Assembly (NCBI RefSeq): GCF_964204645.1
Contig: NC_134031.1
Span: 2,525,001-2,589,000 of the forward strand
Length of the DNA stretch: 64,000 nucleotides
Source: Tubulanus polymorphus
Taxonomy: Eukaryota > Nemertea > Palaeonemertea > Tubulaniformes > Tubulanidae
Direction: 5' to 3'
Positions within the stretch are counted from its first letter, which is position 1, and every line of letters starts with the position of its first letter. The notes under the pieces were generated by a model that was not told where the DNA came from, did no database searches, and saw only the letters and a program-made list of their open reading frames with translations. Positions 3,301-63,300 of the stretch are shown one piece after another. The position numbers and the translations under genes were made by a program.

Positions 3301-5153
3301 GTTCCCGCGTGAGCAATCTACGCGAACTCAATAACTGGATACATCTTCCATTGAACTGCGTCCAGTTTTGTGGACAGTCGATCATATCAAATCTTTCAGC
3401 ATCGAAACCAAATTCTGTTTTGTCCGCTTGATTTTTAATTCGTTCTACACGTTGCGTCGTCCGATTGGCTGATGTCGTCTGATTGGCTGATGTCGTCTGA
3501 TTGGCTGATGTCGTCTGATTGACCCGTTCTTCAGCTGCGTCAGTTCTAGTTGCGGTCGGTTTGATGTTTTTCTCGCACACATGCGCTGGCGCAACAAACT
3601 GCGAACTGCACGCTGTAGCGAAAGACCTCCATGCCATCCGAGGATTTAACGGTGATATCACTGCGCAATGAAATGATTCTTGTTGGAAAGGTTGAACGAC
3701 TCGGTCGTTCAGTTTTTGTTGTGTTGAGATCATATAACCGATGATGTCAAAATCGGACCAGGACGGATCCAGCACTGGTGTTCCGTCTATCCATTCGTGT
3801 CTTTTGGTCTGGAATTCGCAGATATCGTAATGTTAGACCTTATTTATATCAACCATTCAATTATAACATTTATTTTCGAAACCTTACCTCCTGGTTATAA
3901 ACGATGCCTACAAATATAACAGTTGCTTGGTCTCCGGTCTTGGAGTTCGGGTAGAGTTCATCCCTCCATTCGACCAAGAACAAGTATTTGAGGACGTTCT
4001 CGACTTCTTCAGTTTTAAACGTTAGTAACCTACCACCCTCTTGTTCGCAATGCTTGCTCGCATTCAACCACGTGTCATTTGCGTGCTACAAATAACGATT
4101 CGTTCGTTAAATATTGTTAAGAAAATACCAAAATAATCTAAGAGCCCCTCCATGAGCTCGAATGCGGCGGTGGCGACAGTTTGTCGATGCGTCGCCTCTT
4201 AGATTTTCAAGAAAGTTCCGTACATTTTCATACTTTTCTAAAGATAGAGATGTAATTATTCCACAGTTATTGAACTTACCTTAAATAATTTGTAGCACGT
4301 GTTTTTGTATCTATGATAATCGTAATCGTCTCCGCATAGCGATGAAGGTCTAATTAATGCTTTCGGTTTATCGTAGGATTTAACCGCGTATCTCAACGTT
4401 GTCTTTGACAGAGGAAAGAGCGGATTCTTCTCCGGCGATAGTTGTATATGCAAAGGCGATAAATCGAATGTTTTCACTCCGTACTGAGGGATGTTTGATG
4501 CCATTTTACTGAGCGTGCCTGTAACCCCCAACTCAAGCATGTATAACGAGGTGTTTTTCGTCCCGTATTGCAATAGCGCGAATGTCTTCAATATCAATTG
4601 GTTGATGTTATGTATGAAGTCGATTTCGAAGTAGCATCGCCTCGTATCGGGGCAGAAGCTAGAGTTAGGGTGGCGCATTAACGTCAAAGAGCTGGATTTC
4701 TTCTCCGATATCACTACAGTACCGCACTCCTCTATGAAACGCGTCTCATTGACAGGGATTAGACCGCTAAAATTCATCACCTTAAACGAATAGAAATAAA
4801 TAGAAAATTGTTTCACGCGGCGTTTGTATGGTGGCCGATTTAGGCCATACTAAAAAATTCTTGTACGGCCAAACGCGCGACACAAACAATTCTCGACATG
4901 AACAAAATGTTTTGATTTCTCGCGCGATGAAACGTGAAAAAGTGTATATATGCTGGTGTTTGGCCGTAGAGAAGTTTTTCAAGTGGCCCGAATCGGCTAC
5001 GATACGTTTGGCACATTATCGAAGTCTGACCAATGTTCAGAATGGAGCAAGCTCAGCTCATCGGTTTACCTGTCTAGAATAGTCGCATAGCTCGTGCGTT
5101 GATACCCCGAACAACAGTGGAGAAATCAGTGAGATGCTAAACAGCAGCAGCAT
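338..5153 (-). CDS. GRL101-like LDLa/LRR GPCR with two C-type lectin domains, copy 1
   Basis: Four-exon model, all phase 0: 5153-5070, 4780-4280, 4085-3888 and 3808-338 (stop), about 1,416 aa. Exon 1 encodes a signal peptide (MLLLFSISLISPLLF...) and starts at an ATG directly after a good acceptor (ttttttcgcag), so a 5'UTR exon ending near 5239 is likely. Exon 2 is a Cys-containing CUB-like module. Its end (CGDDY..YKNTCYKLF) opens a C-type lectin domain that continues through exon 3 (CEQEGGRLLTF) into exon 4 (HEWIDGTPV ... HVCEK). The single last exon then encodes a second lectin domain (CPQNWTQFNGRC ... ICEVPP), about six LDL-receptor class A repeats with SDE-type Ca2+ motifs, a Cys-rich linker, about seven leucine-rich repeats and a 7TM domain. 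The usual DRY position reads ERV and the NPxxY position WPYIY. The family (Lymnaea GRL101, relaxin-receptor-like LGRs) acts at the cell surface; the ligand is unknown. Domain calls are strong, exon edges are inferred. Confidence 0.88.
3463..3516 (-). repeat. 18-bp coding tandem repeat (NQTTSA) in receptor copy 1
   Basis: Three exact units of gattggctgatgtcgtct plus a partial fourth. On the minus strand they encode Asn-Gln-Thr-Thr-Ser-Ala repeats in the linker between the two C-type lectin domains. Each unit adds an N-glycosylation sequon (NQT). The second receptor copy has only two degenerate sequons at this place, so the array expanded after the duplication. Confidence 0.9.
4831..5001. repeat. 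Imperfect inverted repeat in intron 1 of receptor copy 1
   Basis: Arms of about 43 bp at 4831-4874 and 4959-5001 are reverse complements with a few mismatches. The shared cores are gtggccgatt..ggccat and acggccaaa. The loop is about 85 nt. The element lies wholly within intron 1. The two overlapping antiparallel open frames here are a by-product of the inverted symmetry and are not genes. A MITE-like insertion is possible; no clear target duplication was seen. Confidence 0.7.
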
Positions 5154-5930: not shown

Positions 5931-8900
5931 TTAAGACGGTGGGAGTTTATCCTGTAGTGTAGTTCTACGTTTCGGGGCTTTCCCAGTCGGGTCGACCGAT
6001 TGAATTCTCGTGACTCCTCGAATCTCTGCGTATTTAAGCCGGAATGACCTATACGCGTATATATACGGCCACATGGCTGACTTGAGTGGTACGACGAAAA
6101 GACATATCCAATGAACGACGAATTGCGATAGATTGAGCTCCATCACATTTCCTAATTTCATAATTATAACGATCATCGTACTCAAGGCATTCAGCACTAT
6201 TATACTCTTGATTCGCAGTGTATACTTCATATCTATAAGCTGTTCTGTAGTCATCGTTTCTTTCGTCAGAGTGGCGTGTTTAGCGTACATACCCAGGATT
6301 AGCGACATGATACAAAGAGCGATAAACGACATCAAATCGATGGCGATCTCGATTCCGTGAAACGTCTCCCAACCTGCCACGAAATTCCCGAATAAAGTAG
6401 TCGACAGGCAAAGGCCATTGGTTTCGTACATAGCTTTCCCGAGATCGGGCAAAATCAATACAGGTATCAGGCAAATAATCGCCCCGTACAACCACGGAAC
6501 TATCAAAGAGAGTCGAAAGAAGTGCTTGTTTTCAAAAACGGATGATTTGAAAAATGATAGAATTTCAATGACGCGTTCAGCAGACATGAATAGAATTGCA
6601 ATGAGAGAAATTTGACAACTCAACGACCAAAGAATACCAACAGTCTTACAAACACCTGACTTCAGCAACCATAAAGCCCATTTGTGATACTCTCCCGAAG
6701 TTGTCTTGCTCGTAAAAGCCACCAATACGATATAGATAGCCATCGGTAATTCGGATAAAGCTACATTCGAGACAAGAATCGACGTGGCAAAATTTCGCTC
6801 GGTACACAGCTTCCAAATCGGTATGACGACATTGCCTACTAGTGACATCACCCCGACTAGCCATACTACGTTTTGAATGAAATCATCAGTCAACAGATCG
6901 CTGCAGGTTGAGAATTCGTCTATATTCGGCGTACAACGGCGTATCGACGACTGCAGACAACAATAACTGAAATGTGACGTAATCAGTGTGGACAACGAGT
7001 CGATTTGAAAAGCTCTAGGATCGACATCGACCGGCAAGTTCCGGGAAATGTCTAATTCTACCAAACTATTCATATCAGAGAATGCCAAACCATTGATTCT
7101 ATTTAACAGGTTTTTCTTCAGAGTTAACTTTTGCAAGGCGACAAGTCCCCGAAAAGAAAAATCTTCGATAACCGAAATGGCAAAATAAGAAAGGTCGAGA
7201 CGTTTTAGCGAAACTGCACCGATGAAAGCAAGGGGTTCAATGGTGGTGATTCGGTTTCCACGAAGCTCAAGACGGCGCAGATTCGTCAGACCCCTGAAAG
7301 CGTTTCGTGGTAAAATCGAGACAAAGTTGAACGCCAGGTTGAGCTCGTAAAGACTCCCCATCGAAGAGAACGCAGATGTCGGAAGAGAAGTAATATAGTT
7401 GTAAGACAGATCGAGACGTGCCAATGAATAATACTCTGAAAATGTATCGTTAGTCAGCAATAATCTGTTATAAGAGAATACCAGACTTCGTAAATCTTTA
7501 ACCATTTTTGACGGTAGTTCGGTTAAATTTCTACCCAAACAATCGACAAACAGTCCAAATTGACGACACGTTTCAACTTGACCATCGGCAACTGAGCAAT
7601 ACTTTTCGTCGTCGCCGTTTTGTTTGCAGTCTACTTTTCCATCGCAGACGTGTTTCTGCGATAGACAAAACGAAGAGTTCTTACATCGAAAACTGCCGGC
7701 ACAAGATCGTCTGGGACATTCTAGTTCATCTTCACCTGACGGACAATCGGAAACACCGTCACAAACTCTTCTTTCGTGAATACAATACGACAAATGACAT
7801 TTGAACATATGCGGACACGTGAAATTGCGACAGTTCTTCAAGTGTTCGTTTCGACGACAAACGGGACCGATCATGTTGGGATTTTCGTAAATGCAAGCGT
7901 CGTATCTGGCAAAACAATTATGATTCGTTTCAAGGTCACACCTGACGTCATTTCTCGCCTCGCAATAGCGCCGGAAGTTCGTTCTTATGCGCTTCCTCCT
8001 GCTATCGTGAACTTCAATTCTCCTTGATTTCATATAAACAAATTTTGCTTCGTCTTCCATATCGTAGAATGAGTCATCGTCTTCCCCGTGCTCGCAGTCA
8101 GCTACCAGATCCTGAACGTTTTCCTGAAAGATGCATTTGCCACTGTAACACCGAAACCGATCCTTACAGATGTCGTCCGTCCAGCTGTCAGTACAATCCT
8201 CATCGGAGCCGTCCCGACAATGCTCGATCCAGTCACATCGTTTCGCAATCTGAATACATTCACCAGATCGACAATGGAACTCTCCGCTTTTGCATTTCGG
8301 ATAAGTGCAGTACGCCTCATCCGAACCATCTTCGCAATCACGTACGTGATCGCAGTGTAGAGATATAGGGATACATCCTCTTCCGTCATCGCAAGTGAAC
8401 GTCGACTGATCGCAAATACCGCAGTTCAGTTCATCTATACCGCCGTTACAGTCGACGCTTCCGTCGCAGACTCGTCCGATTGATATACACGTGCCATCTA
8501 AACACCGGAATTGCGTCACGTTGTTACAAACGTATCGATTCGATATCGGTGGAACTTCGCAGAGAACGTTTATCACGCGAGGATAATTAACGGCCGGATT
8601 CTGAAATCCGGGTAATTCTAGATACGGCTGTTGACTACAAGAAGTTTGACGTAGAACCCATTTGTACGGTTTCATGAGGTATTCTTGCCAACTCAACGAT
8701 TCGGCATTTTTCTCGATGTAGTTACACACAGTCTCGTTCTCGTCCGCTTTCACCCAAATTGCTCCGTATTCCGACCTGTGACGCCAGATCTGCAGATACT
8801 GATTGATGAAATCCATGTCATTTTCGGTAATGTTTGCCGCGGTTGAATTCTCATACTCGCCTTTGCAGTACCTCGTAGCAAGGTCATAAGACAATTCCCG

Positions 8901-11034
8901 TTTAAGCAGCCGACTAGAAGCCAACAACTGGATACATTTTCCATTGAGCTGCAACCAGTTTTGTGGACAGTCGGTCATATCAAATCTGTCGGCGTCGAAA
9001 CCAAATTCAGTTTTGTCCGTTTGATTTTTGCTCTGTTTTAGTGTCGTCTGATTGATTGATGTCGTCTGATTGGCCAGTTCTTCGACGTCGATATCAGTTC
9101 TGATTTTTTTCTCGCACACATGCCCTGGCGCATCGAACTCCGCACTGCAAGCTGTAGCCATTGAGTTCCATTCACTAAGAGGATTGTTTGGTGTCATCAC
9201 TGTGCAATGAAATAATTCTTGTTGGAATGGTTGCATGATTCCGGGATTGATCAAATGCTTCATTTGGACTGTGGTGAGGAACGCGTTTCTTTCGTCTTTA
9301 AACCAAGACGGATCGAGCACGGGAGTTCCGTCCAGCCATTCGTGCCTTCTATGCTGAAAATGATAGTTTGTAATATAGCAACAAACCCCGATATTCATTT
9401 TGAAGCATCTAGAATTGTAACGGTTTCTTATGGTACTGGAGGACATTCCTTTGCAATATCATCTAATTTCATTAGTTTGTGTGAAATGATTCTATCTACT
9501 AGATAAAATCTGTCCACGATAAGAAACGAAACGAACGTCAGACAAACATGGACTTTTGAATACTAAAACCGTTATTTCATACTTTATGCGATGGAATTGA
9601 TACCCAGCCTCACCTTCAAGTTATAAACGATGCCTACAAATATAGCAGTTGCTTGGTCTCCGGTCTTGGAGTTCGGGTAGAGTTCATCCCTCCATTCGAC
9701 CAAGAACAAGTATTTGAGAACGTTCTCGACGTCTTCAGTTTTAAACGTTAGTAACCTACCACCCTCTTGTTCGCAATGTTTGCTCGCATTCAACCACGTA
9801 TCCTTTTCGTACTGTAGTATAGAGACATTGAGTGAAAACATTTTCAGAAATAACATAGACAATATGAATAACATTGATAGAGATAAGTAAAGGACATTCA
9901 GCAAAAACATATGTCTAAACACCGGCTAACCTTGAATAATTTATAGCACGTGTCTTTATATCTATAGTATTCGTCATCTCCACATTGCGATGAAGGTCGA
10001 ATCAATCCTCTCGGTTTATCAAATGATTTCACCGCGTATCTTAACGTTATCTGCGCTTGTTTAGTAACTACGGAGCCCATAATCGGATACAGATCAATCA
10101 GCAATGGTGAAAGGTCAAACGTTTTCCATCCGTATTGAGGAATATTTGATGCCACTCCTAATCCGTAACTGCCCGGCTCGTAGTTAAACAGGGTTGTTCC
10201 GTTTCGCCCGTATTGTAATAAGCGGAATATGACCGTCACATAGTTGGCGTTATGTATGAAGTCGATTTCGAAGTAGCATCGCCTCGTATCCGGGCAGAAA
10301 CTAGAATTCGGGTGATGTTTTAACGTCACAATACTGGATTTTCTCTCGGACAGTACTATAGTACCGCACTTTTCGATATAGAATGTCTCCACGATTGGAC
10401 TTGGGCCGTTGAAGTTCATTACCTAACACATAAAACAAATTGATAAATGACTAAACCAACCACCACTAATTTGGTTATCGACCCTTATTTGAGTTATTAA
10501 GATGTCCTATAGACAATAAGATAAAATCCCACTATTTACAGATTAAAAGAATTTAAAAACCAGAATTTATTTATTAAATCTAAAATATTTAAAAGACACG
10601 ACGTTTCGATCTCACCCTAGAGATCATCACCTGACGATGATCTCTAGGGTGAGATCGAAACGTCGTGTCTTTTAAATATTTTAGATTTAATAAATAATTC
10701 TGGTTTTTAAATTCTTTTAATCTGTAAATAGTGGGATTTTATCTTATTATCCGTTCACCACGTTTGAGTGTGGTCATCGTTCTATAGACAATATTGTGCA
10801 GCATACGTATCTTGCAAAATTGAAATGGTTTTGCATGATGTATTGATTGTTTCTTTCATTTTACTCAATTTTTCAAATGAATATTAAGCAAAGCATATTT
10901 CCTAACGCCACGCCTTTCTGTTCATATACGTATTTGGTAAGAATAATTTTCCCTACCTGTTTTGAATAATCGCATTCGAAAGCGGAAGTCGTCCCGAGAA
11001 AGAATGCTACGGTTATCAACAAAGCGGCGCCCAT
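5931..11034 (-). CDS. GRL101-like LDLa/LRR GPCR with two C-type lectin domains, copy 2
   Basis: Tandem paralogue of the gene at 338-5153 with the same four phase-0 exons: 11034-10957, 10422-9931, 9811-9614 and 9353-5931 (stop), about 1,396 aa. Exon 1 encodes a signal peptide (MGAALLITVAFFLGTTSA). This ATG has a strong context (aaaatgg); two in-frame upstream ATGs, at 11073 and 11088, would only extend the N-terminus. The domain order is the same: CUB-like module, split C-type lectin domain (CEQEGGRLLTF, HEWLDGTPV), second lectin domain, LDLa repeats, LRRs, 7TM with ERV and WPYIY. From the Cys-rich linker to the C-terminus it differs from copy 1 by only about 15 residues in about 685. The CUB-like exon and the fourth LDLa repeat are clearly divergent. 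It probably arose by recent duplication followed by conversion. Ligand unknown. Confidence 0.88.
10507..10793. mobile_element. Foldback (MITE-like) insertion with 12-bp target-site duplication
   Basis: Arms of about 114 bp (10515-10628 and 10636-10748) are reverse complements, broken by a single 1-nt indel and separated by 7 nt, so the element folds into a near-perfect hairpin. A direct repeat ctatagacaata flanks the structure at 10507-10518 and 10782-10793, as expected for a target-site duplication. About 30 nt of asymmetric tail with a small ccac..gtgg hairpin precede the right duplication. No coding capacity, so it would be non-autonomous. It sits in intron 1 of receptor copy 2. Short related text (gatcatcatcagg, cgtttcgatct) recurs near 13655. 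Confidence 0.8.
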
Positions 11035-15690: not shown

Positions 15691-15927
<237 letters not shown>

Positions 15928-48125: not shown

Positions 48126-50636
48126 ACGATATGCCGCAATGTCCTCGCTGTTGGTATCAACTGCTGACTATAATAGCTATGATAAAAGCTGTCATTGCCA
48201 GGCTCATCTTCGCCATTCATTCTTTCATAGCGGTTTGGCGTTTGGCTGATGTTAAAAACAACCCCGTCTATTGGTGCTTGGCTTTGACTTTGTTTCTACT
48301 TGCGGCTGAATGCGCTTTCACTTTATGGAAGAAACAGGGCGCCGAGTGGAAATGGTAAGCTGTCTGATAAATTCAAGCATACGCCACTCAGTTCCAGTGA
48401 GTTGAGAGTCCGAGTTAAAATTGAATTAGTTCATTTTCAAATACATATTTTTATACCATCAAATGCGGAGTATATTGCTAATTCCTGATTTGACTTCGCT
48501 ATCATCTACATTAGACGTTCATAACGGATTCTAACGGCTAAGTTATATATGCGGCCCATTGAGACTGATTGACTGTTCTTCAGATGACACTAAATCCCCA
48601 CTAGAACTGTTTACTAAATGTGTAGGAGATACTTCTCATATTGCTCTCATTTAATCCGGCACCAATTGTAGCATATTCTCAGTCCATTGACAGCGACGAA
48701 TATCCATATTTTGTCCGTTACTACTAACTACGTATATCACGCCGATATTTTCCAACTGTCGGTAATTCGTGTCTTAAAGTCAAATGTTATTCTAGTCTTG
48801 TTTCCAATACACCTAGGCATCGATCGAACCTTTACCACCCCGTCTTATAGGGTTATTTAATTTCGTGAGAAATGTTCATCAATTACCGCCATATCCCCGC
48901 AACAAAAACATCCGCCGAGTACTTCCGGCGTTATATGTGACGTCATTGCAGAGCAAAGTGGTAAACGGTGTTCCGAATGCCAGCGTCACTAGTGAGTGAA
49001 ACATCATAACATCTTATAGAGGAGGTTGGCCGATGGTTTAAGTAGACTGGTTATGAATAATTGCTTATTAAGTGCTTTGACAATCCTTATTCTCCTACTC
49101 AGTTTTTCCTATTCTTTTCATTGCAGGTTTTCGCCAGTGGTATTTTTCTATTTATGCAGTGTGGTACCGGCTATTTGGTTTCTAGAGCTGGACCTACTGT
49201 TCAAACGGCTGGAAAAGATTAAATTAGCCAAAGAAGGCATCGTCTTCAACTTCACAGAAAACACCGCCGAAGCATTGTCCATGATCCGAGGATTTGGCGG
49301 AGTAAGTTGCTCGAAATATGCGGAATGACTCTATTGGCCCAACACAGGAAAGATTTGTGTATATGTCTAGACCAAACGATCGGACACTCGTGATACGGTC
49401 AAACCATTTGAACACATCACCGACGATGTTTACTGTCGGAGCAATGGTCACCCTTGATATGTTTTAGACCATGGACGCATAAACTTGCATTCTCAAGTTC
49501 ATACGTCCATGTTCTGAGCAATAGTGCGTCTTCACTATCGGACTCATTGCCTTCCACTCATGACAATGGGAACAGGGCAATCGTCGGGCAACTGGTCAAC
49601 TATCAGCAATTATAGCTCAATTTTTCTTGTTCTCTAATGCATTTTCTCTTTGTAGGTTTATATTCCAATTATGATGACCGCTGATGAGTGGGCGAAAATT
49701 CTTGAACAACTCTTACTTCTATTTCTCATTATCGGTCGCTGGCTTTTACCGAAAGGCGACATAACACGTGACCAATTATCCCAGCTCCTACTGGTCAACA
49801 TAGGAATGGCGGCGGATATAATCGAGTTGTTCGAAGCGTTCAGAGAGGATCAAGTAAAATATAATTACACATTGACGGTAGCGATCTTGTCGTTATGGAC
49901 GGGAAGTTTGTGCCAGTTTACGTTAGTCGTAACGGCGACGAAAGCTCGTAAACCACGCGTAGCCATCGCGCAGAAGAAGGACCTAACGGTGACCTGCTTC
50001 TGTTGCGAAACAGAAATCTGGGCGATCATGACCAGTATAATGTTACAGGACGGACCGTTCCTCGTGTTGCGAATGTTATTGATTTTCCGTTACGAGGTAG
50101 TTAGTTATATGAACGTGTTCTTCACGTGCAAGAACACGTTGGTGATGTTGTTACAGTTGTACCGCATCGCTGTCGTCATTCTCGAACGACAGGTGGCGCG
50201 GAAAAAAGACGACGAGACGGAAACGATTAGCATGAGCATGTCACGATCTCAAAGCGGAATTTCTCGTATATCACGTTTCTCCAACAACAGACCGGATAGA
50301 ATTACGAAATCGCGCTCGTTCGGCGGTTTAGTGCAGAATAAGTCGCAAAACAATATAGACCATTCGTCGTATCCATGTCTAAATAGCAAATCTGCCGGTG
50401 ATCTGACGGTCATGCATGACAACTACTACCCTAGACCCACGCTAAAACCCAAATACCCGAAACACAAACGCTTGCTTTCAAATTCCAGCCATTTGCGCAC
50501 AACCGGTGGGAGTAATTCCAGTGTGAATACGACGAAACAAACTAATGATACCGATATGAAAAATGATGACAGCGATAGGTTGCCATTAGCCCGACACGAG
50601 ACATTCGAGCAGTCACTTGAAGATAGTATTGTATGA
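48126..50636 (+). CDS. TMEM26: TMEM26 orthologue (multi-pass membrane protein)
   Basis: Exons 48126-48354, 49127-49301 and 49656-50636 (stop). Joined, they give 459 aa from the first in-frame ATG at 48131. That ATG has a weak context, and the acceptor before it (tttcag|ac gat atg) implies an upstream exon supplying one base, so the real start may lie in a distant first exon. Recognition rests on family-typical strings: VWRLADVKNNPVYW, EWKWFSP, VPAIWFLELD, IIGRWLLPKGDITRDQLSQL, MAADIIELFE, LQDGPFLVLRMLL and LLQLYRI. About seven to eight hydrophobic segments. The cytoplasmic C-tail is longer than in vertebrates, rich in Ser/Arg (SMSMSRSQS, RSFGG) and suited to phosphorylation. The molecular function of the family is poorly known. 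Poly(A) signals lie at 50643 and 51023. Confidence 0.93.
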
Positions 50637-51270: not shown

Positions 51271-54200
51271 TTATTTTTTGATATTGTCATTACTGGAGAC
51301 ACTGTCATGAGTTTCATTATTTTTTTCCTGTACATTTCCATCATTGGGTTGATTGTCGTGTTCTGACTCGAATCCTGGTAAGCCGGCATGTACTATCGAA
51401 TCTGTATCGCTTGCAGGGTCGTTCTTGTCGGCGTCTGCCGCCAATACGTCGTCAAGAATTTCGGAGCTATCATCGGTTGTAACAAAACCCGGTTGTATAA
51501 CCAGGCTTGCAGGTTTCTCATCAGAGGACTGTGGACTATCTGTGGACTGTGCCTTTACATCGTCATATATAATTTTCTTTATATCGTCATTTGTGACAAT
51601 CAGTTTTGGTTTAAACATAGAGCTGTGGCTTGATTGTTGACTTTCAGCATCTCCAATGGATGTACCTAAAACTTCGGGCAAACTATCAACGTCTATTTCA
51701 AACGTATCATTGGTTGAATCATTTAATGTCTGGTTATTGTTATCTTGTTTTGGATATTCCAGAATAGCATTTTCCGATAGAGCTTCGATGACTGAAGGAA
51801 CCGAATCAGCATTGATCGAACGAACATCTGTATTTTGCAAAGCAGTGTTCCGTGATTCTGAAGTATCTTCTGGATGGTGTTTCTTTATCCCAGCAGTAAC
51901 ATCAGACAATTCATTTTCATCGTCCATAACTATAGTAAATGTTTGAGGGCCGTTGTCATCGATTTCATCAATCGAATTTATGGTATTAGTTATGTTTTCT
52001 ACCTTGCCATCAAGAACGTCAGAATTGTCACCATCCCGTACACCATTAAGAATGTTTTCGAGATCTTTAATGGGAGAAACAGTTATGACCTTGTGATTTT
52101 GTCCATTGTCAATTTCATTGCCCCTATTTTCACTAGTGGGACTATGTGACGATGTGGCGGTTGTGACCTCGTCACTTAGTGTAGTTGTGGGAAACTGTGA
52201 CGTCGTAGGGTTTGTTGTAGATGACTGACGCGTAGTAGAAGGACTCTCTTTGGTATGCACTGTACTAGAAAGAGGCTTTGTGGATTTAGTGCTACTTGCA
52301 TCCATATTAGTGGTTAGGTTTTCCAACTTTCCAACAATAACTTCAGAATCACCATCTTGAAAGCCATTTAAGATGTTTTCGAGCTCTTCTATTGGAGAAG
52401 CAGTTGTGACATCGTCATTTTGTCCATCAGTGTTCACCGCGGGTTTACCTGCTTTTATTTCATTGTCTTTGTTTTCGAAACCAACCATCTGTACAGTAGT
52501 GAGGCTATTTGAAGATGTGGTGGTAGTAACCTCGTGATTTGATGTAGTTGTAGGAATCTGTGAAGTTGTAGGGTTTGTTGTAGATGACTGATGCGTAGTA
52601 GAAGGACTCTCATTGGTATGTGTTGTACTAGAAGGAGGCTTTGTGGATTTAGTAGTTGTTGGTTTAGTGCTACTTGCATCCGTAATAGTAGTTAGGTTTT
52701 CCAACTTTCCATCAATTACCTCAGCACTACCATCTTGAAAGCCATTTAAGATATTTTCGAGCTCTTCTATCGGAGAAGCAGTTGTGACATTGTTATTTTG
52801 TTCTTCAGTGTTCATTGCTGGTTTACCCGGTTTAATTTCATTGTCCTTGTTTTCAAAACCAGCTATCTGTACGGTAGTGAGGCTATTTGAAGATGTGGTT
52901 GTAGTAACCTCATGATTTGATGTAGTTGTAGAAATCTGTGAAGTTGTAGGGTTTGTTGTAGATGACCGATGCGTAGTAGAAGGGCTCTTATTGGCATGTG
53001 TTGTACTTGGAGGGAGCTTTACAGGTTCAGTAGTTGTTGATTTCGTGCTACTTGGGCCCGTAAGCTGTCCTTTCGTAGTGTGACGAATAAATTGTGTAGT
53101 TAGTAGTCTATTTCTGCGTGGAGATTCAGTTTGGTAGTTTTCTAGCAAATTTAAATCATTTTCAAACGAACTGCTTTTGCTCTCGTCTTCAGTAGTAGTT
53201 GGGTGTATATCTGAATTGTATTTTAATGAATCTGAATCATGTGAATCGGTAGACTTTTTAGGTGCAACAGTAATACCAGTTCCTAAACCGTTTTCATCAT
53301 CTATTACGATCGTGAATGTGTTCACACCAGTATTGTTGTTATCGATCGAATGAATGCGGTCGTTTCTTAAATCAGGTTTTGCAGCATTATCGTCAGGATT
53401 TCCATCTAAACCATTTAAGATATTTTCCAGTTCTTCTTCAGGTGATACGGTTGGGAGAAGTGCATTTTGTTCACCATTGTTCAATGTTGGTTCGGCCTTT
53501 TCTGTATCGTTGTGTACGTTAATGGAATCATCGATTTGATCATTGAAGAAATCGTGGGATGATTCAGTAGTACGATTGGCAGTAGGTGTAATGGTAGGAA
53601 CCTGGGTGGAATAGTTAGTCACAGGTTTACTAGTAGATGACTGATGTGTGGCAGAGGTCTTTTCATTTGTCGCAGTGGAAGTACGTAGTGAAGTAGTCAC
53701 CGGTTTAGTTGTAGACGACTGATGCGTGGCAGAGGTCTTCTCATCTGTCGCAGTGGAAGTACGAATTGAAGTAGTCACAGGTTTAGTTGTAGACGACTGA
53801 TGCGTGGCAGAGGGCTTCTCATCTGCCGCAGTGGAAGTACGAAGTGAAGTAGTCACAGGTTTAGTTGTAGACGACTGATGCGTGGCAGAGGTCTTCTCAT
53901 CTGTCGCAGTGGAAGTACGAATTGAAGTAGTCACAGGTTTAGTTGTAGACGACTGATGCGTGGCAGAGGTCTTCTCATCTGTCGCAGTGGAAATACGAAG
54001 TGAAGTAGTCACAGGTTTAGTTGTAGACGACTGATTATGAAGAGTGTGAGTATTGTTTAGTGGAACGTATTGGCGTGTCTTTTCTGTAGCAGTAAGATGT
54101 TCATCTGTATTGTGTATCGCTGTTGCTGAGGGATCAGAAATATCTGGGCCTATGTTGGGTCTTTCCTTTTGGTCATTTATATCAAATGTGAATGATGCAG

Positions 54201-57200
54201 GAATATCGGTAGAATTCCTTGTATTCATGACGTTCGCCAAATTTTTGTCGACGATTTCATGATTGTTTTCATCGGTTAAACCATTTAAGATGTTCTCTAG
54301 GTCTCTAGGAGAAACTGTCGAATGCGACTCATCTTGTTCAGCACGCGTGGTTCCTGTAATAACTTCGGGCCTCTCCTTTTCATCGTCTATCACAATGGTA
54401 AAGGTTTCAGGGGTATTGTAATCGATTAAAGAAATGTGTCCACTTTCAGGACTATCTTCGGTTTCCGAATTGTGTACGATATCATCATCCCCGTAATAAT
54501 TTAGTTTATTTACAAGTTCTTGTTTCGGAGAGCTGGATTGGAGATCATCAATGTAATCATCTGCTTTTGTTTCCGAAACATTTGATGATGTTTTGGAATT
54601 ACTTTTGTTGTCACTTGTTCCAGTAGGTTTAGTGGAAGTGAAAGTGGTTTGAGTTGGTTGATGCGTAGTTTGTCTAATGTCAATTGACTGAGGCGGTAGT
54701 ACTTCCATATTATCGACGGCATCTGGAAATTCAGTCCAGAGTATTCCTTGGCTAAGATTAATATCCTCAACAGTTTGCGAAACGGTAGCAGGAACATCTA
54801 GATTGTACGTTATTGAATAATATGAGTCATCTAATGAATTTACGGCCAAGTTAACCTTTGGAGACTCATCACCCTTGATGGTAAAAATCTCGCCACCAGA
54901 ACCAGAATGTGAATTTGTCGGTGTGTTGATATTGGGATAGCTTATTTCTTCTTCCAAATCATTGCGACTTTCAGTATGTGACACTAAAAAGAAAATACCA
55001 TATCTTATTCAATCATTCACCTATTTACAAAGAGTCTTTGATTCCATGGAAACTTTCAAGTGTTACCCCATTCACACGACGGACCATCGTAACCATCAGA
55101 GCACTGGCAGACAGGTCCTCCTTTCTCATCGACGTAGCACTCTCCGCCGTTTTCACAATGGACGGTCAAACAAACATCTGTATTTACATATGTAGAGTTA
55201 GCGACAGAACGAATACAACATCTAGGAATGTTACGAAAACGTTTATATATTTTCATGTAAAGAGGACTATTATTTGCACATATACCACATTCGGATAATG
55301 CTCGACAAGCATTCGCTTTGAAGATAAACCCGCGGTTACATTCACAACCAGGTGTTGACGGTAAATCACACTCCTTTTTGTTAACTGCACGCTCCGTGCA
55401 AGATGGCTGACATCCTGACATCCTTTTGTTAAACGTGCTATTTTCTGGACACTGCATTCCTGTAAGGACCACGTACATTAAAATAAACACTTAACAGTAT
55501 GTTGTATCTCACTAGGATCTATTACACGTACCACATCGCCGAGAAGTTCTCCACAGACCTATTTCGTAGCCGGCTGCTTCACATTTAGACTCTGCCCCTT
55601 CTAAAGCCCCGCATACCATTTGCATGTCCCCGTTCGTTACAGCTGCATCGAAAAGACAGTCGTCGTAATTTCCCTTGATTAATGAGGTAGAAATACAAGA
55701 AGCGAATGGACCAGTCGAGTTCGTTAATAAGCCGCAGAATTCATCTGATTTGTAACTGACATCATTTATCGAGCCCATTTGAATTAGATCGGCGGCATAA
55801 CTGAAAGGTGTGTAAAGTAGTTCATGTACCATAGTGAATATTGTCAAAGAGTATTGACGCTACCTCATTCCACACTTACTAAGTTATCTCGTGGGTATCA
55901 CGCCTTTTTCTAGTTTTAGATTCAACGTTTGTGCATCTGAAAATGTTCGCCATACATACATAAAATGCTAATTTTTAACGAATAAAGAATGAAGCAAATG
56001 TATATTCTGGATTGCTGTTGAATTCTTCGACTTACGATCCTCTTTCGTGACACTTCCCTTCATCAAGACATTGTAGGAAATTGTCATCATATGCGTTATT
56101 GTTACAATTCCCACATAAACCAGTTAGACTTCCATTGTAACTATTGGTCTGAGAATGATTATCTATAATGACTAAAATGCGATAGTTAGTCTGAATGGAA
56201 ACTGTGACTCCACAGCTGACGATTCTTGCATGCACCACTGAACCACTAGTAACTACTGAGATTCCTCCAGCCGTTAGAGGGGCAGTCCACCTTACGCCAT
56301 TTACCTGTAAATATTTGAATTGGAGATTTCAGCTATTAGATCAGCGTTGTGAGAATGCCAAGAAGGATCAAGTAGACTCTACAATAGTGGGAATTACCAG
56401 AATATGTCTTTTCTCATCAATGGCAACGACATAGCCGTCTAATTCGATTTGTACTTCAGAAATATATGATCCAGCGATTCCACTTTTTACGGGCGAGTGA
56501 ATACTTGTGATACGAAATGCACACGATCCGTACGTATTGCCAGCATATTCAGTCAGTATATATCGGCATAAGCTGCCTTGAAAGTCGAACCTCTTTCCAT
56601 CAAAACTTGTGAAATGGGGGTCACCATTTATAAGGCATTGGCCCGAACACGAATTGGCTGCAATTCACATCAAATGGAAATTGAAGATACAAAATATGAA
56701 AGGGAAAATATTGATAAGTTCATCAATTACGCATCTTACCCAAACTATCAGAAATAGGATCAATTCCAGTGACATTAGTTCTTGTAGTAACAGAATCCAT
56801 ATCATTTGAGTGGTTTGTCGAAATCGTAAGAGTTAAGGCAACACTGCTTGTGCTATTCGCGACATTCCGTCCAGACCCTTCCGGTCCTGCGTCGGTTGAG
56901 TTAGAATTATTTGAGATCGTATTCGAGCCATAATCATACGTGGTGTGGCTGTTTTCATCCTCCAAAATGAGAGTTGTTATCTGGTCCATATTTTTGTAAG
57001 TATCATCCAGGGCCAAATAGGTTTCCTGGTCTGAAACTTCATAATCAGTAGAGGAATGATTATCCTGATATTCCATTTCATACTCGCCGGAGTTTGGTAG
57101 TGGTTTTGTATCTTGCTTTGAAAACCCACTAAAATCGCCATAACCAGTTGAGCTTGATGTCGGTTTCTGTGGTTCTTCTAATTCAATATTCGTAGGCTTT

Positions 57201-59745
57201 CTATCAGAATCACCAGAGTTTGGTTCTTCTAATTCAATATTCGCAGGCTTTTTATCAGAATCACCAGAGTTTGGTTCTTCTAATTCAATATCCGTAGGCT
57301 TTCTATCAGAATCACCAGAGTTTGGTTCTTCTAATTCAATATTCGCAGGCTTTTTATCAGAATCACCAGAGTTTGGTTCTTCTAATTCAATATCCGTAGG
57401 CTTTCTATCAGAATCACCAGAGTTTGGTTCTTCTATTTTAATATTTGTTGGATTTCCATCAGAATCACCAGAGTTTGGTTCTTCTACTTCAATATTCGCA
57501 GGCTCTCTATCAGAATCACCAGAGTTTTGTTCTTCTAATTCAATATTCGTAGGCTCTCTATCAGAATTACCAGAGTTTGGTTCTTCTAATTCGATATTCG
57601 TAGGCGCTCTATCAGAATCACCAGAGTTTGGTTCTTCTATTTTAATATTTGTTGGATTTCCATCAGAATCACCAGAGTTTGGTTCTTCTACTTCAATATT
57701 CGCAGGCTCTCTATCAGAATCACCAGAGTTTTGTTCTTCTAATTCAATATTCGTAGGCTCTCTATCAGAATTACCAGAGTTTGGTTCTTCTAATTCGATA
57801 TTCGTAGGCGCTCTATCAGAATCACCAGAGTTTGGTCGTTCTAATTCGATATTCGTAGGCGCTCTATCAGAATCACCAGAGTTTGGTTCTTCTAATTCAA
57901 TATTCGTAGGCGCTCTATCAGAATCACCAGAGTTTGGTCGTTCTAATGCGATATTCGTAGGCTCTCTATCAGAATCACCAGAGTTTGGTCGTTCTAATTC
58001 GATATTCGTAGGCGCTCTATCAGAATCACCATAGTTTGGTCGTTCTAATTCAATATCCGTAGGCTTTCTATCAGAATCACCAGAGTTTGGTTCGCCTAAT
58101 TCAATATCCGTTGGATTTCTATCAGAATCATCATAGTTTGGCTGCGTTTTAGCATTGGCCTTGGTTTGCTTTGAATCATTAGTTGAAGTTTCTAAATCAC
58201 CACCCCCACCGATTATCTGGGCTGTACTAAAATCATAAACATCAGTAGCGATATGAACGTTTTTATCAGAAAAAAAACCTGGGGTAGTTGGATTATGGTT
58301 TTTGCTAGATTTCATGGTTGGAACTGCTTCTCCGATGCTTTCATCACTACGAAATAGACTGGCAGTTGTAACCGTTTTTGGGATTGAATTATCATTATCA
58401 TTGTATTTTCGGTGCAAAGTTCCCACGTTCAATTGTGTTGGTAATTCAGCAGAAATATCAGTTGGATTACCATTTCCCGGTTCATCATCATTAAAAGTGT
58501 CTTCGTAAACAGGCGATGATTCTGATTTCCCATTTACTAACGTCTGTAACATTCTGATAATCGAAGCGGAGTCACTGCGATCAACATCCTTTTCTTCCTT
58601 GTTCTTAGGATTATCCTCTTTTTTTGTTAAATACTCGCCAAATCCATCGTCAAGATATTCTGATAAAAGTTTTTCCAATAGCTGTAAAAGTCGACTATTA
58701 TTCACGCAGTTCTGATCATGTGCATTAGTATCCGGGTGATTGTTTCTTAAATGCTTAGAAATTGACAGCTTCGTCATGGCTGCTTTTGAGGCCAGGTCAT
58801 AACTACCTGACGTCCGCGGGAATGTTGGTTCTTCTTCGTATGTGACATCTGAACCAAGTCCACGTAGGACCATATTTGATCTGTCGTCGTCAATGCCGAG
58901 TCCACTTGAACCCGAGGCATGAGTGGTATCAATCGACATGTCGCTGTTCGCATTGAGACCGCTGAACATCTGGACATTACCACCCTCACTACTTTCCTTC
59001 GTGATTTGATGGATCGGGTTGGCTACAGAGGTGTAATATATCGAACTCTGTTTACCTACGCGCGGGTTGTAATCAATATGCGAAACACCGTCAGTCAAAG
59101 GGGGCGCAGCATCATCAGTGTCAGTTTGTAAATTGACATCATTCAAGTCACCAGAACCAATAGTTATCTTAGTGAAATCATCTTGTCCTTTTAACACTTT
59201 GTCTTTCGCATTAATTCCAATTTCAATTTCCCGATTGATATCACCAGAAGTAACGTCATCTGCAGGAATTTCATCATTTGTATCAAATTTCTGTATCCAA
59301 AATTTTGTATCGCCACTGCCACTCCCATCGTTATTCAAATTAAAGTCATCAATAGCTCCATGTTTCACTATTTTTTGCGGCGAAATCGATTCATTATCGG
59401 TTCCAGGATCAAACACTGTTCGTTTGAAATCGTCTATTTCAGTATCATCGCTGCCATCGCCGGAGAATTCTAACCAAACGTCTAGAAAATAAATCCACCG
59501 CAGAAGGTATTTGCATTAGGCACGATAATCATTATGTTTATTTAGTATAGGGGTTATAGATGTAAGCCCAGTGGTAACATAGCATTCATTATGTATTCTG
59601 TATAGATGGATAGGCTAAAGTATAGACAAGAAGATAAGAATTTAGGTTTGTTGAGTTAGAAGTTTTCAATTTGGCTGTTACCTTTATTCGGAATAGAGTG
59701 ACGCCCATTTCTCAAGGATTTTGAAGCAAAAATCGCTATAGTCAT
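51271..59745 (-). CDS. Mucin/proteoglycan-like secreted protein: acidic SG repeats, VWD-C8-TIL-EGF, Ser/Thr-rich tail
   Basis: Exons: 59745-59682 (tentative first), 59481-56740, 56657-56398, 56304-56036, 55800-55532, 55459-55067 and 54983-51271 (stop). All junctions keep frame, giving about 2,569 aa. The 2.7-kb exon is acidic with many Ser-Gly-Asp/Glu sites (GSGSGD, IGSGDL, SSGLG) and the 17-residue repeat array. Next come a VWD domain (GDPHFTSFDGKRFDFQG .. GLCGNCNNNAYDDN), C8 (FCGLL .. SCIS .. DDCLFDAA .. VCGAL .. CEAAG), TIL (CPENSTF .. CQPSC .. CNRGF) and one EGF (CENGGECYV .. CQCSDGYDGPSCE). The 3.7-kb last exon is Ser/Thr/Pro-rich and N-glycosylated, with repeats, and ends ..DNIKK without a membrane or GPI signal. 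Role by family: gel-forming or matrix glycoprotein. The true 5' end is unsure: MTIAIFASK.. is a poor signal peptide, and these exons may belong to the antistasin gene upstream. Confidence 0.8.
53600..54036 (-). repeat. 78-bp coding tandem repeat in the Ser/Thr-rich tail
   Basis: Five full units of 26 residues and a partial sixth. Each contains QSSTTKPVTTS, then L or I, then RTSTATDEKTSAT. The L/I position alternates strictly (L, I, L, I, L), which suggests growth by two-unit (156-bp) steps. The units are dense in potential O-glycosylation sites, as in mucin PTS domains. Confidence 0.9.
57171..58139 (-). repeat. 51-bp coding tandem repeat, 19 units (NSGDSDRxPTxIELEEP)
   Basis: Exactly 19 units (969 bp) of a 17-residue acidic repeat, consensus SGDSDRKPTNIELEEPN. 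Units 7-10 (57630-57833) and 11-14 (57426-57629) appear identical by eye, a 204-bp higher-order duplication. Units 15-16 and 17-18 form a second one of 102 bp. Nearly every unit carries Ser-Gly next to acidic residues, a candidate glycosaminoglycan attachment context. Confidence 0.95.
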
Positions 59746-60351
59746 TCGTTGAAAAAGTAATCGGTATCAATTTTGAACGGTGATACCACAATGAAACGAA
59801 AGGCAGCTAATTTCCTCTATCATACAAATATTTTTCTCGGTTTGCCTGAAGTCTATATGTAAATCTGTAGTGAACAAGCGTTCGTTCTTCTGTGTCGAAA
59901 ATAATCAGAATTCAGAAAAAATGCGATATACAAGCAACAATAAAACCAACATAAGCGATGGTATACTCCAACAAAAACAACAAAAATAACTTAACATAAA
60001 TTTCTAAAACCATTTCTCTATCTATTTAGGATACTCTTCCACATATAAACGCATCAATGTTGATTATGATGGATTTTCCAGGAAAAGAAGATAAATGTGT
60101 GATGTACGGAGATCATACAGCAGGGAATTTGAAAATTTCATGTTTAAAGTTTCACAAATGGTTAATTGGCAATGCCAACTGAAGCTAGATTGAAATGTAG
60201 TTGGAATTAGTCAATCTCTGCAGTTCCTAGGTAATCCTTGCCCAAATATTCTTAATGCATATACATATATAACACTGGGATTGCAAAAGGTGATTAACAC
60301 TCCAAGTTATCAAAATGGAATGTTTACTACGTGTGTTTGCTATATCGCGTT
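59746..60351 (-). other. Gap between the antistasin and mucin-like genes
   Basis: About 600 bp. No clear poly(A) signal for the antistasin gene was found. An acceptor-like gacacag occurs near 59897, followed by a frame open for about 28 codons. If the two genes are independent, this gap must hold both a terminator and a promoter; if they form one locus it is an intron plus an alternative 3'UTR. Confidence 0.4.
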
Positions 60352-63300
60352 TTAAGTTTTCTTATCATGCTTCGCCTTTGCCCCTCTGCTGTCCAACACT
60401 GGCTCGTTGCTATCAGTAGATGACCGAGTGATTGTACCGTTCTGTGCATCCGATTCATTACTTATCTCAGTGTCGCTATCGTGTATGATTTTCTCTTTGA
60501 AAAATTCAACATTCGTAGGCTCACCACCATTGATCCTGTCGACTTTGATGGCAAATATATCCGTTTCGTTCAGTTGAACATCGGCAATCTGTCCACTATA
60601 ATTCAGTTCATCGTTTTCAGAATCGTTTTTGCCACTGTGAACTGCGAATGCAGTAGTTGTAACAATCTGCTTCATGGTCGCGTTGTCATTTTCCACCTCA
60701 TTTACTTCGACAAACGTACTTGCATCTGTGAGTTGGTCACTTTCTTCTTCCGTGACCTGGATGGATTTTGAATGAACGGCTTCATTTGTTGCTTTGGCCA
60801 GTTTTTTAGGATCTTTCTGCTTTTTGTGATTTCTGCTTCCACTTTTCTTCTTCTTTCCGGGGTTCTTCTGTCTTTTGTTATGATTTTTAGCAACCTTATG
60901 TGGTTTCACTTTCTTACCAGAAAAACTAGCGTTCTCGATCTCTTGATCATGTACTGTATCATTTACAATCACTGAGTCAGATACCTCTAGCTCTTTGTCC
61001 TTAACTTCATCTAACGTTGTGGTATTATGGTTACCAGTTATATGATCACCACTGTTCGGAGCATTATCAAAACCAGCCGGCGGTACACAAGTACATGTCT
61101 CACAACTTAAGCTGTCCATCATGTGCCCATATTCGCAATGTTCATCGCAGTCAAGTTCTTCAATGCTTTTACAGGCAACTTCAACGAGTTCTTTGCATAT
61201 ACAAGAATCGCACCCGTGTTTGTCCTTAAATGAACCGTTTGGACAGGGGCCGCTGTCGCAATGAAGATCAGCGCATGGAACAGGTGGCAACTTAGGTCTT
61301 AAGCATTCGCAAGTCTCACATCCGTTTTCATCTCTTTCAGAACCGTGAAGGCAAGGTCCATCCCAACAGTTCAGGTCTAATTTACAACCTTTACAAAAAC
61401 ATGTGGGACAACCGTCCGAGTCAAGTTCATAGTCGTTTTGACAAGCATATTGGCAGTTATATTTCGGACAAAAACCGCTATTTTTATTAACTGGTGGCGG
61501 TACTATAATTCCATCAATGACAGGTGGCTGCAACACATCTGAGCACTGACAAATCACGCAGCCGTATTGATTATGTTCAAACCCTGTATCGCAGTCCAGT
61601 TTACAGGTGTCAATCGATTCACAAATGAATTCTGGAGGTGACCTACATCTGCAGGTTTCACAGCCAGATCTGTCAAGGAACGATCCATGAATACACGGTC
61701 CCTGGTCACAATGCAAGCTAGGACAAAGATCACTAGGAATCTCTGGTCGTTTACATTCGCACGTTTCGCAACCATTTTCATCTTGTATCGAACCATAAAG
61801 ACAGGGGCCATCCCAACATTTGTAGTCAGTACATGCACACTCGCAAGTAAGACAATAATTATTATCGTGTGCGTATCCATTGGTACATGTTCTGTTACAC
61901 TTTAGCATGGGACATTCATTGATACAATTACACGTTTCACAACCATTTCCATCGCTTTGGTAGCCGTTTTTACAAACACTCGGGCATGTATGCTTTTGGC
62001 AAATCTTCTCTACCACTCCCGTGCAGTTACAAGTTTCACAGCCATATTCATCTTTAACGCGCTCAAGAGGGCAGCTATTTCCACATTGTAGATCTGCGCA
62101 TTTGTGTTCTTCTGCGTTACATTCGCATTTACTACATCCAAAACGATCGACGACATAACCACGAAGACATGCACGAATACATTGAAGAGCGGGGCATTCG
62201 TGGTTCCCACTCGAGATTTTGCAAGCACACATTGGACAACCTGCGCTGTCAGTAGTGAAACCATAAGGGCATCTTTTGTTGCAGTCCTTTGTTGGTGGAC
62301 AGTTACTACCAGGTGCTCTAAGGCACGAACATGTCTCACAGCCGTTTACGTCCAAATTTGAACCGTGCAAGCAAGGGCCATCTGGACAGTGAACTGTTGG
62401 GCAAATGCACTCGCATGTTTTACAGCCCTCATTGTCAACCTGATTTCCTAATTCACACTTCTTTGTACATTCTGGTAATGTTGGACAACTCACGGACGTT
62501 GCGTTTCGACAGAGGCATATTTCACATCCGTACATGTCAACCTGATAACCAGTACTACAGGATTTGTAGCATTTGTTGATTTTCGATGTATCACAGATGA
62601 CCTCAGGTGGTTGCTGACATTCACACGTAGGACAACCTCGTTTGTCGTGTTTTGAGCCGTATTTGCACGGCTCCTTCTGGTAGCACCGATGGCTTGGACA
62701 TGTTTCCATCTCACCTGAAAAAGAAAAAAAGGGAAAAAATAACATCATGCATGACATTGTTCACGTTTTCCATTAATTTTTCCACTTCAATCTTTTCCCA
62801 GTGTTTTTAGCTAAGTAATCAGAATTTTTCACCTTTAACAATTGTTTGATTATTTTCTGTAAGTTCTGCTAGTTTGCTACTATTGTTGTTTTCTTGTGAA
62901 AATATCGCATGCGATTCAACGTGAAGATGTGCTTTTGTAGACAAAGCATCGTTGTGTTTAGAACTCTTGGACTTTTTAGCGTTATGGTGCCGCCGTCTTC
63001 TTATTTTTCTTCGCCGTCTTCGGGGCCGTTTTCTAGGTCTTCGATGGTAGCTTCGGCGGCGATGTCGCTTTTGTTTTGTATGACGACCATCGTTTTTCTT
63101 GCTAAGTTTGTTTTTGTTATTGTGGAGGTTAGCGTTAGTACTGTTTGAAATATTGATAGCAATTTCTGAAAAATGGATTTTCAAAACGTGTGAAATAAAA
63201 TTCCTTTCTAAAGACTTCTAGAGTTTCTTTGAGTATTTTTCATATTACCGTGGATTCAATGGTTTTGCCAAAATATCAGATAATTTATCAATAAGAAAAG

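What the first reader, a model, noticed from the sequence alone, without database searches (positions are those of the whole stretch)
57171..58139. Nineteen acidic Ser-Gly repeats with nested higher-order duplication: a candidate proteoglycan
The 17-residue unit SGDSDRxPTNIELEEPN places a Ser-Gly next to acidic residues 19 times, and non-repeat parts of the same exon contain more (GSGSGD, IGSGDL). This resembles glycosaminoglycan attachment contexts. Identical 204-bp and 102-bp blocks show recent growth by unequal exchange. A VWD-C8-TIL-EGF protein with a chain-bearing repeat arm would be an unusual secreted proteoglycan/mucin hybrid.
Basis: partly seen in the sequence, partly recalled or inferred. 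Interest (0 to 1): 0.7.

Follow-up and report, generated by a model that had tools for sequence, protein, structure and literature searches.

The report
Mucin-like protein with candidate sugar-chain arm
An animal gene encodes a large secreted mucin-like protein with a long acidic arm full of serine-glycine pairs that may carry chondroitin-type sugar chains; part of the arm grew by tandem duplication, and the sugar chains cannot be proven from sequence.

Summary
The array is real: 19 tandem 51-bp units, minus strand, in frame in one exon of a predicted secreted protein. Corrections: 17 of 19 units carry Ser-Gly (15 SGD), and 0 of those 17 sites meet the strict nematode motif E/D-G/A-S-G. They have Glu at -4 (16 of 17) and -3 (14 of 17), as at highly sulfated human sites, and Asn at -1, on which two XT1 papers differ. 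Support beyond the array: in the rest of the exon SG is the most over-represented of 73 dipeptides (2.3-fold), though not over the whole protein without the array. The genome has CHGN-family genes; the xylosyltransferase search did not complete. Against: no codon-level selection in the array; 1 of 895 stop-free stretches near related genes has two acidic SG sites. The core is an FCGBP-like VWD-C8-TIL-EGF unit with GDPH motif, possible furin site and Ser/Thr-rich tail. Best reading: FCGBP/mucin-like protein whose N-terminal arm is a plausible chondroitin carrier, about even odds. New variant of a known kind. AlphaFold's strand model of the array is discounted after a control.

The parts
59932..60013 (-). 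candidate first exon: start codon and signal peptide (MVLEIYVKLFLLFLLEYTIAYVGFIVA)
   Evidence: Inferred: phase-compatible GT donor; the five most hydrophobic 19-residue windows of the whole protein start at residues 7-11. An earlier donor (GTTTTA) would also fit in phase; no transcript and no signal-peptide program.
56740..59481 (-). exon 2: acidic N-terminal arm with many Ser-Gly pairs (residues 28 to about 942), including the array
   Evidence: Open frame with AG/GT borders in phase; outside the array SG occurs 12 times, 2.32-fold, first of 73 dipeptides.
57167..58135 (-). array of 19 in-frame 17-residue units (residues 477-799)
   Evidence: 13 distinct DNA units.
56036..56657 (-). two exons (56657-56398, 56304-56036) encoding the VWD domain with GDPH motif (residues 953-956)
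   Evidence: Pfam VWD 2.8e-21 on the joined protein; GDPH position and Gln at H+12.
55880..55936 (-). short 57-bp exon encoding RKRR (residues 1127-1130), possible furin-type site between VWD and C8
   Evidence: Exon chosen by phase and GT-AG borders only; RKRR; the furin reading is recalled motif knowledge, not tested.
55532..55800 (-). C8 domain exon
   Evidence: Pfam C8 1.9e-12 in the exon frame.
55067..55459 (-). TIL and EGF exon
   Evidence: Pfam TIL 2.5e-6, EGF 2.7e-4 in the exon frame.
51271..54983 (-). last exon: Ser/Thr-rich mucin-like tail, 20 N-glycan sequons, no Cys, stop codon
   Evidence: 216 of 1138 100-residue windows of the tail reach 40% S+T with 5% P (best 53%); 0 of 818 windows of the N-terminal arm do.
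53616..54035 (-). Thr/Ser-rich 26-residue tandem repeat (78 bp x 5.4) inside the tail
   Evidence: TRF.

Best explanation
The gene encodes a secreted mucin-like protein built around one FCGBP-like D assembly (VWD-C8-TIL) followed by EGF, with an acidic arm on the N-terminal side and a Ser/Thr-rich tail on the C-terminal side. Shown: open frames and phases, domains, array, composition. Inferred: the arm is unstructured; a xylosyltransferase adds xylose to some Ser of its Ser-Gly pairs and these are extended to chondroitin-type chains. Chondroitin is expected over heparan because CS is the default (PMC10570366) and because in 15 of 17 array sites Arg or Lys at +5 breaks the acidic run after the Ser. 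The VWD is expected to cut itself at GD|PH with the arm kept on by disulfides, so the product would be a chain-bearing arm clamped to a mucin-like body. Unequal exchange may vary the number of possible attachment sites between alleles.
For: Array, SG counts and duplications. Array site contexts: E at -4 in 16 of 17, E at -3 in 14 of 17, both in 13 of 17; 17 of 17 have at least 3 D/E within five residues on either side. D/E at -4/-3 is common at highly sulfated human CS sites (PMC10424144, passages). XT1 needs a small residue at +1 and in one report tolerates uncharged residues at -1 (PMC5992326, passages). SG in the exon outside the array: 12, 2.32-fold, first of 73 dipeptides; by 5,000 shuffles of a stretch that also takes in one SG just past the exon (residue 946), 13 against 5.2 expected, p 0.0002; part before the array 9 vs 3.6, p 0.007; part after it 4 vs 1.6, p 0.06. 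Two sites meet the strict motif, DGSG at 79 and EGSG at 895. SGD marks the attachment sites of perlecan domain I (PMC12063283, passages). CHGN family: seven matches over cut-off at four places of the genome, best E 1.9e-136. D assembly: best PDB relative FCGBP (8rde), then MUC5AC, MUC5B, MUC2, VWF; GDPH plus Gln at H+12, the position of FCGBP Q4094. Tail composition.
Against: 0 of 17 array sites meet E/D-G/A-S-G. Over the whole protein without the array SG is not enriched: 19 against 15.0, p 0.16; in the tail 3 against 5.6. [quoted passage not shown] PMC13038410, on the same peptide panel, says Gly at -1 does not tolerate substitution well and that basic residues lower XT1 activity (section 7); the 17 array sites have Asn at -1, 15 of 17 have Arg or Lys at +5, and 3 of 17 have Arg at -3. 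Among the 13 distinct units pN is 0.126 and pS 0.092; in the first five codons pS 0, pN 0.051: no sign that the Ser-Gly block is kept by selection on the protein. 1 of 895 stop-free stretches in 20 stretches fetched around related D-assembly exons has two or more acidic SG sites. Gln at H+12 is found in 11 of the 19 GDPH motifs of those stretches, so it is not invariant in the family. Xylosyltransferase and FAM20 searches did not complete (PF12529, PF06702).
Confidence: 0.5

Rival explanations
1. The array is a coding minisatellite that grew in a tolerant exon. The Ser-Gly pairs are incidental and the arm is an acidic spacer on an FCGBP-like mucin, without glycosaminoglycan.
For: pN not below pS in the array; strict motif absent in the array; other tandem arrays open in two frames occur in this genome (L002, L003, L004, L005, L008; two longest frames printed per locus); SG not enriched over the whole protein without the array; the stretches around other D-assembly exons hold no comparable arm.
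Against: SG is enriched in the same exon outside the array, which a minisatellite does not explain; Glu sits at -4/-3.
Confidence: 0.35
2. The arm is a polyanion that binds calcium or mineral, perhaps phosphorylated, working by its carboxylates.
For: 29% Asp+Glu in the array.
Against: 0 of 36 Ser of the array are in S-x-E, the FAM20C-type motif (motif recalled; count); Arg+Lys make up 9%. Calcium or mineral binding was not tested.
Confidence: 0.08
3. The array folds into a beta-solenoid rod.
For: AlphaFold2 without an alignment gives one strand per unit, best mean pLDDT 67.7, pTM 0.71, five models 54.7-67.7.
Against: The Thr-rich tail repeat of the same protein, given as a control, also comes out all-strand (11 strands in 142 residues), best pLDDT 88.1, pTM 0.83, although two of its five models are at 35-36; PMC11795689 reports confident but unrealistic beta-solenoids of AF2 on repeats (passages); Foldseek against PDB: best E 1.1, 0 at 0.001.
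Confidence: 0.03
4. The repeat exon is not part of the VWD protein but of a separate or skipped transcript.
For: No transcript data were available.
Against: The chosen splice sites join in phase into one 2,594-aa frame with one stop, at its end; the exon is open over 914 codons.
Confidence: 0.04

Closest known systems
FCGBP (IgG Fc-binding protein) D assemblies
   Same: VWD-C8-TIL with GDPH; best PDB sequence relative; Gln at H+12 as FCGBP Q4094.
   Different: One VWD instead of 13 (number for FCGBP from the abstract of PMC10880436); an EGF, a Ser-Gly arm and a mucin-like tail are added.
Gel-forming mucins (MUC2, MUC5AC, MUC5B)
   Same: D assembly is a sequence relative; Ser/Thr-rich stretches.
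   Different: One D assembly; no Cys after residue 1357 and therefore no C-terminal cystine knot.
Perlecan domain I and serglycin-type Ser-Gly proteoglycans
   Same: SGD or SG pairs as attachment sites (perlecan; serglycin and the acidic surroundings of both are recalled).
   Different: The array spaces its pairs by 17 residues and has Asn before the Ser; chains not shown.
Own-genome relatives on C9:11681185-11745834 (seven GDPH exons)
   Same: Same order of VWD (two exons), C8 and TIL matches, with EGF-like and Thr-rich stretches after them.
   Different: No acidic Ser-Gly arm in the fetched stretches; upstream of three of the seven GDPH exons EGF-like frames are seen by eye, not tested with Pfam.

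Membership tests
Proteoglycan | at least one covalently attached glycosaminoglycan chain | not testable with these tools
   Needs glycoproteomics.
Proteoglycan | Ser followed by Gly with acidic residues close by | tested here: met
   17 of 17 array SG sites have at least 3 D/E within five residues on either side; outside the array at least 2 D/E in 5 of 9 before it, 1 of 3 after it, 1 of 3 in the tail.
Proteoglycan | site in an unstructured stretch | tested here: inconclusive
   Inferred from composition; no disorder program was run and AlphaFold2 gave strands that the control discredits.
Proteoglycan | stringent C. elegans motif E/D-G/A-S-G | tested here: inconclusive
   0 of 17 in the array; 2 elsewhere in the protein, DGSG at 79 and EGSG at 895.
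Proteoglycan | host has chondroitin synthesis genes | tested here: met
   CHGN family over cut-off at four places. CHSY-type and CSGALNACT-type genes were not told apart.
Proteoglycan | host has peptide O-xylosyltransferase (Xylo_C) | not tested
   PF12529 requests not answered (first, last).
FCGBP-like D-assembly proteins | VWD-C8-TIL order | tested here: met
FCGBP-like D-assembly proteins | GDPH motif in VWD | tested here: met
   Residues 953-956. Cleavage itself is not testable here.
FCGBP-like D-assembly proteins | many D assemblies in series | tested here: not met
   One VWD stretch in the joined central part; no VWD in exons 2 and 8.
Gel-forming mucin | Pro/Thr/Ser-rich domain (at least 40% S+T and 5% P over 100 residues; criterion recalled) | tested here: met
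   216 of 1138 windows of the tail.
Gel-forming mucin | C-terminal cystine knot | tested here: not met
   No Cys in the 1,237-residue tail.

The most novel reading that the evidence does not exclude
A single secreted protein that is both a self-cleaving FCGBP-type mucin and a multi-chain chondroitin proteoglycan, with chain number set by an expanding tandem repeat and so possibly different between individuals; after GDPH cleavage the chain-bearing arm would be held to the body by disulfides only.
Probability: 0.3. Interest if true: 0.6.

Novelty: new variant of a known kind. Interest (0 to 1): 0.38.

Why it matters
Information on invertebrate proteoglycans is scarce and limited to a few species (PMC8418075). 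If the arm carries chains, this is a mucin and a proteoglycan in one protein with a repeat-tunable number of attachment sites. It also gives a natural test of whether PN-S-G with Glu at -4/-3, without Gly at -1, is enough for chain start, a point on which two XT1 reports differ in wording.

Tried and rejected
Beta-solenoid from AlphaFold2: set aside after the control with the tail repeat gave a more confident all-strand model and after PMC11795689. Other matches of the exon in the genome: 9 besides itself, 14-33% identity, 5 of 9 with stops inside, 50 of 58 candidates scored. For the seven loci given for them I printed the two longest frames each; they are other tandem or low-complexity repeats, one of them (L007) with 9 SG in 443 residues of the type FSGPSP; the matching frame itself may not be among those printed. 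FAM20C-type phosphorylation: 0 of 36 Ser in S-x-E. Selection on the Ser-Gly block: not detected. Searching the genome for xylosyltransferase (PF12529) and FAM20 (PF06702): no answer. The species was not identified.

Literature: nine paper searches were answered. Six bear on proteoglycans or on VWD proteins in general. In what was listed, titles and abstract starts name no proteoglycan with a VWD domain, 12 of 18 papers were listed and 0 of the 12 hold the term 'VWD domain', 10 of 13 were listed. Two papers that hold all six terms (PMC10609567, PMC7853314) were not opened. This is weak evidence of absence. No paper was read whole: passages of PMC8418075 (plus section 7), PMC10424144, PMC5992326, PMC10570366, PMC12063283, PMC13038410 (plus section 7) and PMC11795689; of PMC10880436 the outline with abstract, section 4 part 1 of 2, and section 11.
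Full report
What is there. The array lies on the minus strand at 57167-58135 in frame (TRF 57170-58141, 51 bp x 19.1, 90% matches). It encodes 19 units of 17 residues. There are 13 distinct DNA units. The nested duplications are real: 229 identical bases at a 204-bp lag and 143 at a 102-bp lag.

The gene. Eight exons with GT-AG introns join in phase to 2,594 residues. The first exon (60013-59932) is inferred from hydrophobicity and phase, and another donor would fit; the 57-bp fifth exon rests on phase and borders only. Exons 3, 4, 6 and 7 have Pfam matches. The joined central part matches VWD (2.8e-21), C8 (3.8e-11) and TIL (1.6e-5); EGF is at 1.3e-3, just under its cut-off there and just over it in the single exon. 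The closest solved relatives by sequence are FCGBP (8rde), then MUC5AC, MUC5B, MUC2 and VWF. The VWD has GDPH, and Gln at the position that in FCGBP D10 is Q4094, whose mutation partly impairs cleavage (PMC10880436, section 4 part 1; position by arithmetic); among 19 GDPH motifs of related stretches 11 have that Gln. An RKRR lies between VWD and C8; reading it as a furin site is recalled knowledge. The tail of 1,237 residues has 28.5% Ser+Thr, 20 N-glycan sequons and no Cys; 216 of its 1138 windows of 100 residues reach 40% S+T and 5% P.

Is it a proteoglycan? [quoted passage not shown] In the array, E is at -4 in 16 of 17 sites, at -3 in 14 of 17, at both in 13 of 17, and D/E at -4/-3 is common at highly sulfated human CS sites (PMC10424144, passages). 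SGD marks the attachment sites of perlecan domain I (PMC12063283, passages). The best support is independent of the array: in the rest of the exon SG occurs 12 times, 2.32-fold over composition, first of 73 dipeptides tested; a shuffle of a slightly longer stretch, which takes in one SG past the exon, gives 13 against 5.2, p 0.0002. Of the 9 SG before the array, 5 have at least two D/E within five residues; of the 3 after it within the arm, 1; of the 3 in the tail, 1. The genome (267.8 Mb, 77 contigs) has CHGN-family genes at four places.

Against: the stringent nematode motif E/D-G/A-S-G (PMC8418075, section 7) is met by 0 of 17 array sites and by two sites elsewhere. Over the whole protein without the array SG is not enriched (19 against 15.0, p 0.16; tail 3 against 5.6). 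Single substitutions of the Glu at -2 to -4 had little effect on XT1 (PMC5992326), so those positions are favourable, not required. [quoted passage not shown] Among the distinct array units pN (0.126) is not below pS (0.092), and the first five codons have pS 0 and pN 0.051, so their constancy is explained by copying and does not show selection.

Relatives in the genome. The exon-2 search found 10 matches, of which only the window itself runs full length; 50 of 58 candidates were scored. The D-assembly search found 88 exon matches, 4 of them the gene itself, with 98 of 161 candidates scored. Twenty stretches around some of them were fetched; they hold 19 GDPH motifs, and 1 of their 895 stop-free stretches of 60 residues or more, all six frames, has two or more acidic SG sites. 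Shorter exons and the surroundings of the other matches were not looked at. The arm thus seems peculiar to this gene among those looked at.

Which chain? PMC10570366 (passages) says CS is the default and that acidic residues after the Ser-Gly specify HS. The array sites have D at +2 (15 of 17) and D at +4 (17 of 17), but R or K at +5 in 15 of 17. I expect chondroitin. This is inference.

Structure. AlphaFold2 gave the array a strand per unit (best pLDDT 67.7). The Thr-rich tail repeat, used as a control, also gave an all-strand model, best pLDDT 88.1, with two of five models at 35-36; confident but unrealistic solenoids on repeats are described in PMC11795689 (passages). No PDB fold matches at 0.001 (best E 1.1). 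I take the array as unstructured, by composition; no disorder program was run.

Verdict. The protein is an FCGBP/mucin-like secreted protein and a candidate proteoglycan at about even odds. It is a new variant of a known kind, of moderate interest.

Noticed in passing
window 51271-54983 (-): The tail holds degenerate modules: five copies of a stretch ending in LENILNG after SP, and four TFTIVIDDE-like stretches, besides a direct duplication of period 378 bp at 52278-53054.
   Followed up: partly
window 338-3832 and 5931-9458 (-): Two neighbouring, similar frames with LDLa repeats, leucine-rich repeats and a rhodopsin-type 7TM (the 7TM match is just below its cut-off in both).
   Followed up: partly
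window 60352-62760 (-): Frame with 15 antistasin stretches (8.9e-65) and a long non-antistasin end, next upstream of the mucin-like gene on the same strand; that end also has an NSGD.
   Followed up: no
window 15693-15924: Perfect (AT)116 repeat.
   Followed up: no
window 49656-50636 (+): Frame matching Tmem26 (4.8e-64, positions 123-285 of the profile), convergent with the end of the mucin-like gene.
   Followed up: no
L028-L035 (C9:11681185-11745834): Tandem cluster with seven GDPH exons of the same family; the Thr-rich frame after the EGF-like one varies strongly in length between copies (759 residues at 11700676-11698400, 136-148 in others), followed by a recurring frame (QVDVPVDQRIAV...) without a Pfam match above cut-off in the one copy tested.
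   Followed up: partly
L005, L008 (C1:31.72 Mb): A tandem repeat open over 860-970 codons in more than one frame, showing how easily long stop-free repeat frames arise in this genome.
   Followed up: no
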